Source of the DNA: Sacculina carcini
Taxonomy: Eukaryota > Arthropoda > Thecostraca > Sacculinidae
Direction of reading: 5' to 3'
Assembly: GCA_916048095.2 (NCBI GenBank)
Contig: OU696573.1
Coordinates: 7,171,806-7,235,805 of the forward strand
Length of the DNA stretch: 64,000 nt
Numbering within the stretch: position 1 is the stretch's first letter; every line of letters begins with the position of its first letter. Under the pieces are notes generated by a model. That model did not search any database, had not been told where the DNA came from, and saw nothing but the letters and a program-made list of their open reading frames with translations. Shown piece by piece: positions 5,649 through 9,500 of this stretch. The position numbers and the translations under genes were made by a program.

Positions 5649-5700
5649 TTTGTGTCTGATGATGGAGTCTGGTAACTCCGAAACGTTACGTAATATAGGG
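5649..5700 (+). ncRNA. Hammerhead-like ribozyme in PLE tail (plus copy)
   Basis: CTGATGA (5656-5662), stem II GGAGT...ACTCC, GAAA (5680-5683), a minimal stem III ACG-TTA-CGT and a GTA cleavage triplet ending at 5692. Stem I would pair 5649-5655 with 5693-5699, using several G-U pairs. All core positions expected of a hammerhead are present. The ATG at 5662 opens a frame (MESGNSETLRNIGKLL...) through the ribozyme. Confidence 0.7.
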
Positions 5701-5847
5701 AAGTTGTTGAGTTGTCTGAATAGAAGCGATCAGAAATTGGCTAGAGACATGGAATCGACCAAAAAGAAAATTGCTAAATGTGAAATAGCAATCCAGTTTA
5801 ATATCGTTTGCAAGCGCGAAAATTTACTGCCTGGCTACACCAACATC

Positions 5848-5850
<3 letters not shown>
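5662..5850 (+). other. Open frame in PLE tail starting inside the ribozyme
   Basis: The frame starts MESGNSETLRNIGKLL and continues with a charged segment ending AIQFNIVCKRENLLPGYTNI before running into (TA)n, which it reads as IYIYIY. Similar proteins are encoded at 9118-9270 and, on the minus strand, at 44400-44560. It may be the N-terminus of a full-length PLE protein preserved in the terminal repeat; that is inference, because no intact element is present in the window. Confidence 0.5.
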
Positions 5851-5919
<69 letters not shown>

Positions 5920-5944
5920 CATACACAAACACACGCGTACACAA

Positions 5945-5986
<42 letters not shown>
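5847..5986. repeat. Two (TA)n tracts around a CA-rich spacer
   Basis: (TA)n at 5847-5916 and 5955-5986 with a CACACGCGTACACAAACACAC spacer-like segment between. A matching GT-rich stretch follows at 5987-6030, so the region can fold back on itself. Confidence 0.95.
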
Positions 5987-5990
<4 letters not shown>

Positions 5991-6030
5991 GTGTGTGTGT
6001 TTGTGTACGCGTGTCTTTGTGTATGCACTG

Positions 6031-6616
6031 GGCGCACTCTCGCGTATCGATCGCGTTAGTCGTCCCGGATAAGTTCGGCAGGCCAACGGTGGCTGCTTCT
6101 GCCTCCGCCGACTACCGTGTGTGTGTATATGTATGTATGTGTGCGTGTGTGTGTGTGTGTGAAGTCATCATCAGTATCTAGATGCGCACGCGCTGTTTGA
6201 GCCAGTACTTGTGATCACAGTGGCAATGTTTTTGTGAGTGTGAGCATGCGAGTTTACTTGATGATCTCATCTGCTCATCGTACAGTCTCAAAAACAACTT
6301 GCAGCCCGGAAAAGATACCCGTACCTCCCCTTTACTGTTCTAGCCTGTGTTCAGCTGTGCATGGGTCATCTTGACTTGAAAACTGCAAACATAGCACCTG
6401 CAATTCGGACTCGAGCCTTCGTTGTACCAGAGGTTAGGCGTGCTGGCTGCTGTAATCTTAGCTTGCAGGTTGCACGTGCGTCCGTGTGTGTGTGCAAGTG
6501 TGAGTGTGAGTGCGTTCAGTGCAGGCTAGCAAAGGTTGACGTGTGGCAGTGGCTGCGATAGTGCTGACGGCGCATCGTCGTGTGCGCACGGTAAACGTTG
6601 GTGCAACGTTGCAATA
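6031..6616. other. Unassigned DNA between the inverted arms
   Basis: Contains short GT-rich tracts (6117-6160, 6485-6510) but no recognised gene or element. Open frames here are short and compositionally simple. Confidence 0.4.
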
Positions 6617-6830
6617 CAGGCCGGGTAGTGAACCGTGGACTTACCGTGAGGACCGACCAAATTACGATCAGCTCGAGGTGGGTTTCTCGGTATGAATATG
6701 TATAACGTTGGGGCGTTAAAACCGGGTGGCCAAAGTATAGTCCTGGTGCACCAGTGAACACGGACCAAACCGAACCGGTTTTGAGCAGGATTTTATATAG
6801 CGTATGTGAGACTCATTGTGTATGTGATGT
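6617..6830 (-). repeat. Right arm of the ~205-bp inverted repeat
   Basis: Reverse complement of 4770-4975, beginning GGCCGGGTAGTGAACCG and ending near TCATTGTGTATGTGATG. Only a few mismatches are visible between the arms. Unlike the left arm it is not bordered by (TA)n. Confidence 0.85.
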
Positions 6831-7440
6831 ATATACTCTTAAAGACAGCAACATGATATATTCACATACCCCAGTGAAATATTTAAAAGCAAGTCGAAAC
6901 ACTGAACACTGACACGAACAGAGCAAGAAAACACATGCCTATAACGTTTTTTAGCAAAATCACTATCGAAATATGTGTTCCTCCTATAGTAACATAATCT
7001 ACATCGAGTGAAAATCTGAGTGTAGTGATCAGTGTGACAATATTTTGTTCATTATATTGCTGACCTCAGCGGATTATACATGTATTCAAGCATTGCATTA
7101 TAATTTTTTATCAAGGTTGATTGGGGTTTGTTGTCTCCACGAAGCTCAGCGTTTGATTCACCCAATTCATACAATCCAATCCTTAAGTCAGTCTATTCAT
7201 ACACTTCTTAATTACTCTCGAATACATTTCTCGTGGAGGCTACAGTAATGTTCATTTGAAATGCCACTTTTGATGTCAAAGTATAGGCTTTAGATGCACG
7301 GCAAACAAATATACATGTAAATACAATATAAACATCACAGTCACTTCATACACAGGCTCGTACGCACATGCAAGCAGAATAATCCACGTAATACCCGACA
7401 TTGTCGTGTCAGCATTCACACCCGAGGATTAAATAGCAGA
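6831..7440. other. Unassigned AT-rich DNA
   Basis: No convincing gene, repeat copy or mobile-element terminus seen in this stretch. Confidence 0.4.
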
Positions 7441-7576
7441 CTGGTTCAACAGATTAGTGCGCAGTCTTGAGGAAAACTGTTTGAGATTTGCGGCTGATTG
7501 GACGAAATTTGACGAACTTGCCCAGAAATCGAAACGAAATGAACATTTAAAAGGGTCCCCTGTCAATTGGAACCAT

Positions 7577-7616: not shown

Positions 7617-7765
7617 AGTAGATATAACACAATACCAATCAAAATACACAATATCAAACAGTACACGATAAACGGTGTTTATATACAAGGTGAGACAATA
7701 TATCACTCATGTGCCAATGTGGCACCTACATAATGACACCTATGCGGCAAACGGTCGTTACAAAA

Positions 7766-8426
7766 TTAGCACCTATGTGCCAAGGTCGATTGGTGTCGCA
7801 TGGATGGAAGGGCGACATCTGGCTGTTGTTGAATGTTAATTTCACATTTATTTTTATTAATAAATACAGCTTCAATTATTTTGAGCCTACGGATGTCATT
7901 TTCTCTGTAAATTATTTCGGTTTTCTCATCCATAGTCTTTCGGTCCAATTTGATTTGATGCTGCTGGCGGTAGTGCCTGGCAATGGCTCCGTCTTGAAGG
8001 TGTGCTGAAATTCGTTTGGACAGCGTTGTTGTTGTGTAGCCAATGTAATGCGAGTTTCGGCGACTGCAGTCACCAGTTGTACATGTATGCTGGTACACTA
8101 CATTGGTTTCTTGCAACATGCTGGTCTGTTCATACAGGCAATGTCATGGTCATACAGGCAACTGTTCTTCATCACCAAGCTGCGTGTTTTGCGTGTCTTG
8201 TAATAAATGACAAGCTGCAACTTGGTGCCTTCTTCTGTTGGCTGCACGTTTCTATCGACGATTCTTCTGATGGCGTTCTCATCATCTCGATAGGCAGAAG
8301 ACATGATGTTCTTGTAGTACAATTTGATGGTCATTGTCTCTTTGTGTTTCCTCTCTTCTTCGATATATTTCGACAATTTGTCGCGTATTACACGATCAAT
8401 GGTAGTTTGTTCATAGCCGTTGTTAA

Positions 8427-8430
<4 letters not shown>
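7766..8430 (-). pseudogene. PLE linker plus GIY-YIG endonuclease, frameshifted
   Basis: Two overlapping minus-strand frames form one broken gene. The first (8430-8098) carries the lysine-rich linker found between RT and endonuclease in PLEs. The second (8119-7766) is a nearly complete endonuclease: VVYQHTC..., the YIGYTTTTLSKRISAHL catalytic block with its Arg, DGAIARHY, and LKIIEAVFI with the catalytic Glu. The shift lies at a direct duplication of TCATACAGGCAA (about 8129-8160), which looks like the cause. The RT is missing, cut at the (TA)n tract. Confidence 0.85.

Positions 8431-8488
<58 letters not shown>
8429..8488. repeat. (TA)n microsatellite
   Basis: About 30 TA units followed by a short GT run, marking the junction of two PLE fragments. 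Confidence 0.98.
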
Positions 8489-8498
<10 letters not shown>

Positions 8499-8520
8499 AT
8501 ATACATATATATCGACGTCG

Positions 8521-8964
8521 TCACGCTTGTGCTGCAGCAAGGGCACACACAGTCAGCTTAGACCGTGGGGCTCTCTGAGTCGGTAAAATGCCGTTTTCTT
8601 CAACTTGCACGTTCATGGCTGATCTCAAGTTGGTGATGTAAATTGCTTCAAGCAGTTTTAGACGCCGTATGTCATGTTCTTGGTCAATGATCTCTGTGCT
8701 TTCTACTATCTGCTCCCTATTGATCTTTTGTTTGTGCACCGAGATGTTGTGCTTTTGGATTGCACCATTGCTGAGGTGGCACGTCAGCCGTCGCGACAGC
8801 GTTGTGGTCGTCATACCGATGTATGAATGAGGCCCACACTCCTCATTTGGACAGGTGTATCGGTATACGACATGGTGCTGCTGCAACTTGCTGGGCTTCT
8901 CCATCATGGGCCTGTTTTTCATAACAACATTGACAGTTTTTCGCGACTGATAATATACTACCAA
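8521..8964 (-). CDS. PLE GIY-YIG endonuclease, 147 aa open fragment
   Basis: Uninterrupted frame. Landmarks: a basic linker (VVYYQSRKTVNVVMKNR), VVYRYTCPNEECGPHSYIGM with paired cysteines, the TTTTLSRRLTCHL catalytic block, SNGAIQKHN, RRLKLLEAIYITNL with the catalytic Glu, and the C-terminal VEENGILPTQRAP signature. This is the complete nuclease domain of a PLE protein that would cut DNA for target-primed reverse transcription. The upstream RT is missing, so the start Met is only the first in the open frame. Confidence 0.88.
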   Translation of the reverse strand: MVVYYQSRKTVNVVMKNRPMMEKPSKLQQHHVVYRYTCPNEECGPHSYIGMTTTTLSRRLTCHLSNGAIQKHNISVHKQKINREQIVESTEIIDQEHDIRRLKLLEAIYITNLRSAMNVQVEENGILPTQRAPRSKLTVCALAAAQA

Positions 8965-9104
8965 TTTGACCTTTTTTGTGTGGCTGGTGGCCTAGGTGCG
9001 AATTTCGCACACCGCGCGCATACACGAGGCGTGAAAATCACACATACAATTGACGTCCTATATAAACACACAATCGACAACAAACAAACGGCATTTAGTT
9101 GACC

Positions 9105-9150
9105 ACATTGTCTGAGGATGGAGACCGGCTGCTCCGAAACGTTACACATC
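9105..9150 (+). ncRNA. Hammerhead-like core in PLE tail, stem III degenerate
   Basis: CTGAGGA (9112-9118) fits CTGANGA; stem II GGAG/CTCC; GAAA at 9136-9139. The next bases ACGTTACAC cannot form the stem III that the related ACGTTACGT copy forms, so activity is doubtful. The ATG at 9118 opens METGCSETLHIGELL in frame through the core. Confidence 0.5.
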
Positions 9151-9274
9151 GGCGAATTACTGCACAAGCTCAACAGCGATCATCAAAAACTCGCACGAGC
9201 GATCGAGACGACGAAGAAGAAGATTGAAAACTGCAAAGCGGCAATCCAGTTTAATCTCGTTTGTCTGGATAAGA

Positions 9275-9308
9275 ATATATATATATATATTTATATATAT
9301 ATGTATAT
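9275..9308. repeat. (TA)n-rich tract
   Basis: Short imperfect TA run separating two PLE tails in opposite orientation. Confidence 0.9.
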
Positions 9309-9500
9309 ATGCACGATTTGTTGAAATCAACAGCAATCTGGGCACTGTTGTGCTGGTACGATAGCTTCTCTATGCTGCGCACGATTTTTCTGTGTTCAGG
9401 AGACAACACACTCAGTTGTTCACTGAAGTTTATTCCTCGAGGTACCTTTCGGCTATCACTAGCCATCGTCAGGAGAAGTAGATATAACGATATACGAAGT
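9309..9500 (-). mobile_element. Penelope-like element tail, third subfamily
   Basis: Minus-strand tail: ribozyme core at 9480-9431, then a frame starting MASDSRKVPRGINFSEQL and continuing with LSPEHRKIVRSIEKL, IAVDFNKSCI before the TA tract. The charged segment is alignable with the tails at 5.7 and 9.2 kb although the DNA is unrelated at sight. No endonuclease is attached. Confidence 0.65.
9431..9480 (-). ncRNA. Hammerhead ribozyme candidate, best conserved in window
   Basis: Minus strand: stem I 5' strand TACTTCTC, core CTGACGA (9472-9466), stem II GGCTA-GTGA-TAGCC, GAAA (9450-9447), stem III AGG-TA-CCT, cleavage C at 9439, then GAGGAATA pairing back to stem I in seven of eight positions. 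Every invariant core base of the hammerhead is present, and stem III is the very short form known from PLE ribozymes. Predicted cleavage lies between 9439 and 9438. Activity has not been shown. Confidence 0.78.

What the first reader, a model, noticed from the sequence alone, without database searches (positions are those of the whole stretch)
5649..9480. Hammerhead core whose last A is the A of a conserved ATGG start in three PLE families
In three unrelated-looking PLE tails the ribozyme core and a start codon coincide: CTGATG-ATGG (5656), CTGAGG-ATGG (9112) and, on the minus strand, CTGACG-ATGG (9472). The reading frame continues through stem II, GAAA and stem III (MESGNSETL, METGCSETL, MASDSRKVP) into a charged segment similar in all three. 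Hammerheads in PLEs are established; a register-locked overlap between ribozyme core and start codon is, as far as I know, not a described feature. It could couple RNA cleavage to loss of the translatable 5' end, or simply reflect dual constraint. Stop or start use is unproven.
Basis: partly seen in the sequence, partly recalled or inferred. Interest (0 to 1): 0.75.

Follow-up and report, generated by a model that had tools for sequence, protein, structure and literature searches.

The report
Ribozyme overlapping a retrotransposon's start codon
Several related jumping elements in this genome begin their protein inside a small self-cutting RNA motif, so the same few letters serve as ribozyme and as start of the protein; the layout is real, but it has already been reported for one such element in a lizard, and sister families do without it.

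Summary
At +5656, +9112 and -9472 a minimal hammerhead core (CTGANGA) is followed by one extra T and stem II (GG...), so A9-T-G makes ATGG. In full-length relatives from the same genome this ATG opens the RT-endonuclease frame (one intact 841-aa ORF; a homologue from another source starts at the same residue). Codons 10-50 evolve as coding sequence, and stems I and II covary between independently found families. The predicted cut lies 26-28 nt after the A of the ATG.

[quoted passage not shown] (2) It is not register-locked across PLEs: a sister family keeps the core ATG out of frame and starts its ORF 38 nt later; a Neptune-like family has AAG there; two further families have a U3-A8 hammerhead about 150 nt upstream. 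(3) The window copies are insertion tails, not gene starts. Cleavage would part start codon from ORF, but a selected switch is unproven. New members of a described arrangement.

The parts
5650..5693 (+). Hammerhead of PLE family T (CTGATGA-T-GGAGT..ACTCC-GAAACGTT); ATG at 5662; predicted cut after 5687
   Evidence: 3-8 pair C-G, stem II 5 bp, stem I 6 bp in this copy, H17 = T, cut 26 nt from the A of ATG
5662..5851 (+). Tail: first ~190 nt of the family T ORF (MESGNSETLRNIGKLL...LPGYTNI) running into (AT)n at the distal RT start site
   Evidence: 97% identical to residues 1-62 of the intact 841-aa ORF; breakpoint at +190
5257..5544 (+). C-terminal (endonuclease) end of the same family T insertion
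   Evidence: tblastn, 92% over residues 742-841 of the intact ORF
5180..5207 (-). Inverted copy of the family T hammerhead at the other end of the insertion; its tail is the short one (+165)
9109..9146 (+). Hammerhead of PLE family G (CTGAGGATGGAGACCGGCTGCTCCGAAACGTT); ATG at 9118; homology of the tail ends at 9276, then AT-rich repeat
   Evidence: stem II 4 bp, stem I 3 bp, cut +26; residues 1-54 of the ORF, 65% identical to family T
9434..9478 (-). Hammerhead of the third PLE family (CTGACGATGGCTAGTGATAGCCGAAAGGTACCTC); ATG at 9466; predicted cut after 9439; tail breakpoint at +163
   Evidence: stem II 5 bp, palindromic stem III half (AGGTACCT), stem I 5 bp, H17 = C, cut +28
7587..7612 (-). 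Third-family copy with C3->A and no stem I or III by the same rule: relic
14025..14048 (-). Hammerhead with A instead of T after A9 (CTGACGAAGG): no ATG at the core; downstream of the Neptune-like RT fragment at 15659-14820(-)
44386..44575 (-). Decayed family G tail, core reads CTGAGGTGGAG: core and ATG both lost

Best explanation
These are Penelope-like element (PLE) tails. In one PLE clade the hammerhead sits across the boundary of 5' UTR and ORF, so that A9, a single inserted U and the first G of stem II form the ORF's own AUG, with A6 at -3 and G at +4 giving a good initiation context. The stretch is under two constraints, ribozyme and protein start. The same ~190 nt also reach to the two reverse-transcription start sites, which is why insertions carry the hammerhead plus the first 54-63 codons as their tail. 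Cleavage would come 26-28 nt after the A of the AUG, so a cleaved tandem transcript leaves the AUG on the upstream piece. I take that to be mainly a consequence of a module placed at the ORF boundary, not a selected device, because related families have their AUG beyond the cut. Shown: anatomy, ORF opening in two families, coding selection, stem covariation, tail ends. Inferred: cleavage, initiation at this AUG, and any effect of one on the other.
For: L025 holds an 841-aa frame without stops from the core ATG, RVT_1 at 340-521 (E 2.5e-8), GIY-YIG at 714-798 (19.8 bits, below its 22.6 cut-off). L046 is an HHR-ORF-HHR unit of the third family; the core ATG is the first in-frame ATG after a stop (one in-frame stop later in that copy). 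P0001, 904 aa from ENA, starts at the same residue; M1, E2, S6-E7-T8 shared. Codons 10-50 of families T, G, A, F: pS 0.73-1.00, pN 0.14-0.31, 6 of 6 pairs. Seven families found without a pattern that fixes stem II: stem II positions 3-5 pair 2.7 of 3 within and 1.4 across families, stem I 3.9 of 4 and 2.2; 9 and 2 of 10000 shuffles reach this. Cut +26 in T, G, A, E, F, as published for PAc. 20 of 30 distinct tails end at +163-166 or +188-190.
Against: No Rfam hammerhead model matched the window even at E <= 1; stem III halves are 2-4 bp and can pair only in a dimer, and stem I is 2-3 bp in several copies. The total lack of change in the core/stem codons among T, G, A, F is partly forced: A, E and F were found with the pattern, which fixes ATGG and CCGAAACGTT. 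For T against G, found without it, the four free codons 2, 6, 8, 9 agree 4 of 4, against 11 of 27 same-residue codons in 10-50 (about 0.03) or 4 of 19 in 10-42: suggestive only. No cleavage, expression or initiation data for this genome. Family A has an in-frame ATG 15 nt upstream, T a second one 3 nt upstream. The one nearly full-length family G frame (L028) has a length change in loop II that puts its core ATG out of frame. T, G, A, F are single copies, some decayed, so mutations after insertion add to both pS and pN.
Confidence: 0.75

Rival explanations
1. A selected switch: the element's own protein binds the start of its ORF, promotes hammerhead cleavage and so removes the AUG from that RNA, turning an mRNA into template and limiting its own translation; an initiating ribosome would in turn block ribozyme folding.
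For: Cut lies 26-28 nt after the A of the AUG in all seven in-frame sequence types tabled: T, G, A, E, F, third, MANV. In PAc the ribozyme cleaves only when protein is added, and insertion needs the first 172 nt of the ORF in the RNA (PMC11167929).
Against: Families 864, Neptune-like, 813 and 844 have the ORF's AUG 8, 71, 131 and 133 nt beyond the cut and are numerous too. [quoted passage not shown]
Confidence: 0.2
2. The ATG is an accident of the ribozyme (A9, a tolerated U, stem II starting GG) and the ORF starts elsewhere; the tail frame is not coding.
For: Family 864 keeps the T after A9 in 100 of 100 listed of 136 matches, although its core ATG is out of frame (near-identical copies, not independent); families A and T have further in-frame ATGs upstream.
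Against: The frame from the ATG runs into RT-EN without a stop; purifying selection on codons 10-50; in the third, G, F and MANV copies no other in-frame ATG lies between the upstream stop and the core; P0001 starts at the same residue; published start of PAc.
Confidence: 0.07
3. Chance motif or artefact of reading AT-rich repeats.
For: None found.
Against: 411, 253, 136, 111 and 445 genomic matches for five hammerhead patterns, 0 each in reversed controls.
Confidence: 0.01

Closest known systems
PAc (Poseidon of Anolis carolinensis), PMC11167929, Mob DNA 2024 (passages and second half of main text seen)
   Same: [quoted passage not shown] C3 and G8 lie before the start codon; cut site 26 bp downstream of it; two reverse-transcription start sites within the ORF; AT-rich targets
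   Different: Reported for one element (hammerhead conserved in several Anolis); here seven in-frame sequence types in one genome, with selection and covariation tests, and related families without the overlap. Tails here end at about +163 and +190; PAc initiates mostly at 111-118 bp into the ORF
Adineta vaga Penelope elements, PMC3846280, Mob DNA 2013 (passages seen)
   Same: [quoted passage not shown] inverted pLTRs
   Different: The word hammerhead does not occur in that paper
PLE hammerheads (Cervera and De la Pena 2014; Lunse, Weinberg and Breaker 2017): titles seen in reference lists, papers not held; contents recalled
   Same: Minimal, dimer-type hammerheads in PLE terminal repeats
   Different: Whether they note the start codon could not be checked
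U3-A8 hammerheads, PMC3088659 (section 8 read)
   Same: Covariation of C3-G8 to U3-A8 in nature and activity of such cores in vitro are reported; families 813 and 844 here carry it
   Different: That section does not tie it to PLEs

Membership tests
Penelope-like element | Telomerase-like reverse transcriptase domain | tested here: met
   RVT_1 340-521 of the 841-aa ORF, E 2.5e-8; telomerase-likeness itself not tested
Penelope-like element | C-terminal GIY-YIG endonuclease | tested here: inconclusive
   PF01541 at 714-798, E 0.001, 19.8 bits, below the curated 22.6
Penelope-like element | Tandem or inverted pseudo-LTRs with tails at AT-rich targets | tested here: met
   HHR-ORF-HHR tandem units L025, L046; outward-facing inverted tails; ends in (AT)n
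Hammerhead ribozyme | Core CUGANGA ... GAAA ... UH | tested here: met
   All rows except relics (-7612: C3->A; L023: H17 = G) and 813/844, which have U3-A8
Hammerhead ribozyme | Stems I and II supported by compensatory change | tested here: met
   7 families found without a pattern that fixes stem II; first pair of stem II never varies
Hammerhead ribozyme | Self-cleavage at the predicted site | not testable with these tools
   Needs in vitro RNA; the published PAc relative needs added protein
PAc-type hammerhead/ORF-start overlap | ORF start codon at A9/stem II with the cut about 26 nt downstream | tested here: met
   +26 in T, G, A, E, F; +28 in the third and MANV types; full ORF shown for T and third only
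PAc-type hammerhead/ORF-start overlap | Present in all hammerhead-bearing PLE families examined in this genome (the 'register lock') | tested here: not met
   864, Neptune-like, 813 and 844 lack it

The most novel reading that the evidence does not exclude
The overlap is a built-in translation-to-template switch of one PLE clade: protein-assisted hammerhead cleavage takes the start codon off the element's RNA, and a family that left the arrangement replaced it: in family 864 the core AUG now opens a 13-codon upstream frame whose UGA overlaps the main AUG.
Probability: 0.18. Interest if true: 0.7.

Novelty: new member of a known kind. Interest (0 to 1): 0.36.

Why it matters
It gives a multi-family case of one short stretch serving as ribozyme core, start codon and, further on, reverse-transcription start, with uncoupled related families in the same genome. 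That makes the open question of what PLE hammerheads do directly testable: compare families whose cut removes the AUG with families whose cut spares it.

Tried and rejected
Rfam scan of the window at E <= 1: 44 matches, no hammerhead family; mostly miRNA models on low-complexity repeats. The search for related loci in viral contigs and genome contigs: no relative confirmed. Protein search with residues 1-120: one hit, P0001, organism not given. Chance and non-coding readings rejected. 'Three independent families, therefore convergence' rejected: one clade in an N-terminal tree of 8 rows, where the fork joining T/P0001 with third/864 has support 84/92 (drawn open) and the Neptune row is a long branch. 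The first form of my RNA-constraint test was flawed: the zero changes and the 5e-9 rest partly on families found by a pattern that fixes those letters; the cleaner tests are, and I lowered the main confidence from 0.8 to 0.75 for it. The U3-A8 cores of families 813/844 first looked new to me; PMC3088659 already reports such covariation. Structure prediction was not used.
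Full report
What is there. The window is G000:C6:7171806-7235805 of a 264-Mb, 43-contig genome. The three motifs of the finding are at the stated coordinates. Each reads C3-T-G-A-N7-G8-A9, one extra T, then stem II beginning GG; the A of the ATG is A9. The coincidence is mechanical: A9 + inserted T + first G of stem II = ATG, with A6 at position -3 and the second G at +4 (contexts ctgatgATGG, ctgaggATGG, ctgacgATGG in copies of the three families). 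The patterns are far above chance (411 matches and 0 in the reversed control; 253 and 0 for the third family).

What the copies in the window are. They are ends of PLE insertions. The family T tail follows a 92%-identical C-terminal fragment (5257-5544) and is matched by an inverted copy at -5207; fragments of the C-terminal half lie next to the G copy (9021-8566, minus) and, at 43-46% identity to T and so probably of the third family, at 8430-7796 (minus). Tail ends are discrete: of 30 distinct T and third-family rows in the held loci (18 and 12), 20 end at +163 to +166 or +188 to +190 from the ATG and run into (AT)n, 4 continue as full-length ORFs, and 6 end or lose ungapped alignment earlier (29, 110, 140, 142 in T; 124, 155 in the third). 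Family G was not in that test; its homology ends at residue 54. PMC11167929 describes two adjacent reverse-transcription start sites for PAc, mostly 111-118 bp into the ORF, and equates the stretch between them with the 'tail'. So the 'charged segment similar in all three' is the conserved N-terminus of the ORF, carried as tail.

Does the ATG open the ORF? Yes where it could be tested. L025 (C1) has an 841-aa frame without stops from the core ATG through RT and a GIY-YIG-like end. L046 (C4) is a third-family HHR-ORF-HHR unit; after an upstream stop the frame is open for 24 codons and the first ATG is the core's; one stop interrupts it after residue 593 of that copy. Family G aligns with T over residues 6-817 in one piece in L028, but that copy has a shorter loop II that shifts its core ATG out of frame, so for G, A, E, F and MANV the link rests on tails. 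P0001 begins at the same residue. The exact initiator is open in T (ATGATGG, two in-frame ATGs) and A (another in-frame ATG 15 nt upstream).

Dual constraint. For families T, G, A and F (4 of the 5; E left out because its copy is broken) codons 10-50 have pS 0.73-1.00 and pN 0.14-0.31 in 6 of 6 pairs, so the frame is coding; codons 1-2 and 6-9, which hold core, stem II and the GAAACGTT strand, show no change, while codons 3-5, mostly loop II, vary. That invariance is partly forced, since A, E and F were picked with a pattern that fixes ATGG and CCGAAACGTT. T and G are free of this: codons 2, 6, 8 and 9 use the same codon 4 of 4 times, against 4 of 19 same-residue codons in 10-42 or 11 of 27 in 10-50, about 0.03 by chance on the latter. 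The better evidence for RNA constraint is covariation: in seven families found without a pattern fixing stem II (T, G, third and Neptune-like from the window; 864, 813, 844 by protein search) stem II positions 3-5 pair 2.7 of 3 within a family and 1.4 across families, stem I 3.9 of 4 and 2.2, with 9 and 2 of 10000 shuffles as good. The third and 864 families, 53% identical in N-terminal protein, differ by compensatory changes in both stems.

Not locked. Family 864 (L068-L070, L074; 136 genomic motif matches) keeps CTGAAGATGA, but A9 to G12 is two bases longer than in the third family and the core ATG is out of frame: it opens a 13-codon frame whose TGA overlaps the ATG of the main ORF 38 nt downstream, 8 nt beyond the predicted cut. 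The Neptune-like family has AAG in the same register, with the frame open to an ATG 93 nt downstream; the non-T pattern has 288 matches against 32 in its control, and by eye about 90 of the 100 listed are of this family. Families 813 and 844 (445 matches, 0 control) have U3-A8 in place of C3-G8 and the ORF start 151 and 156 nt downstream of A9. In a tree of 8 rows T, P0001, third and 864 group apart from 813/844, with Neptune a long branch. So the overlap goes with one clade and was lost within it if 864 derives from an in-frame state, which the tree suggests but does not prove. In the MANV type 99 of the 100 listed of 111 matches have the T.

Mechanism. Most likely the PLE processing-and-priming module (hammerhead plus RT start sites) lies at the junction of pLTR and ORF because units are read in tandem; in this clade it reaches into the first codons, and both functions are kept. 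Cleavage 26-28 nt after the A would put the AUG on the upstream product. Whether that matters is unproven: in PAc, hammerhead mutants do not change insertion in vitro, cleavage needs protein, and no RNA-seq ends were found at the cut. The protein-dependence is also what a feedback switch would need, which is why I keep it as the novel case.

Known or new. [quoted passage not shown] PMC3846280 states for one element that the pLTR includes the first codons of the ORF. Paper searches showed no other title that I recognised as describing the overlap; I opened only some of those papers, and the two central hammerhead-PLE papers are not held. The finding is therefore a new set of members of a described arrangement, with added evidence on constraint and on families that lack it.

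Noticed in passing
L060-L067; genome-wide: Two PLE families with long open frames carry hammerheads with U3-A8 in place of C3-G8 (TTGATAA-A-GCC..GGC-GAAACGT, stem I 5 bp), 445 matches, 0 in the reversed control. Such covariation is known in nature; here it is abundant in PLEs.
   Followed up: partly
window 5180-5850 and genome-wide pairs: The two outward-facing ends of one insertion tend to use different RT start sites: one long and one short tail in 10 of 11 family T pairs and 28 of 31 third-family pairs (0 of 10000 label shuffles reach this; the short-tail list held 100 of 107 places); the other 4 are short-short, none long-long. PMC3846280 says the tail is optional on one of the inverted pLTRs.
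   Followed up: yes
ORF codons 43-49 of families T and G (L025, L004), just before the RT start sites: T and G share 7 of 7 codons here against 4 of 19 same-residue codons in 10-42; weaker in other pairs (3 of 5 or 6 to 5 of 6). Picked after the fact; could mark RNA constraint at the priming site.
   Followed up: partly
L068:510-560: Family 864: the hammerhead core AUG opens MTLIYVERCLGQK* whose UGA overlaps the main ORF's AUG (AUGA), a layout that could allow reinitiation.
   Followed up: partly
L080, L081: Neptune-like family: frame open through the hammerhead, with AAG where the other clade has ATG, until the ATG 93 nt downstream; a lost or never gained start.
   Followed up: partly
window 14820-15659(-) and about 14400-14800(-): Neptune-like PLE with RT and a GIY-YIG-like YYGETGKG stretch (read by eye); 140 genomic matches to the RT query, those at about 27-31% identity being other PLE families.
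   Followed up: partly
window 45135-47078(+), 52044-53270(+), 53645-56547(+), 30234-34049(-): Other retroelement-like open frames (non-LTR RT-like and LTR/integrase-like by eye, no search done).
   Followed up: no
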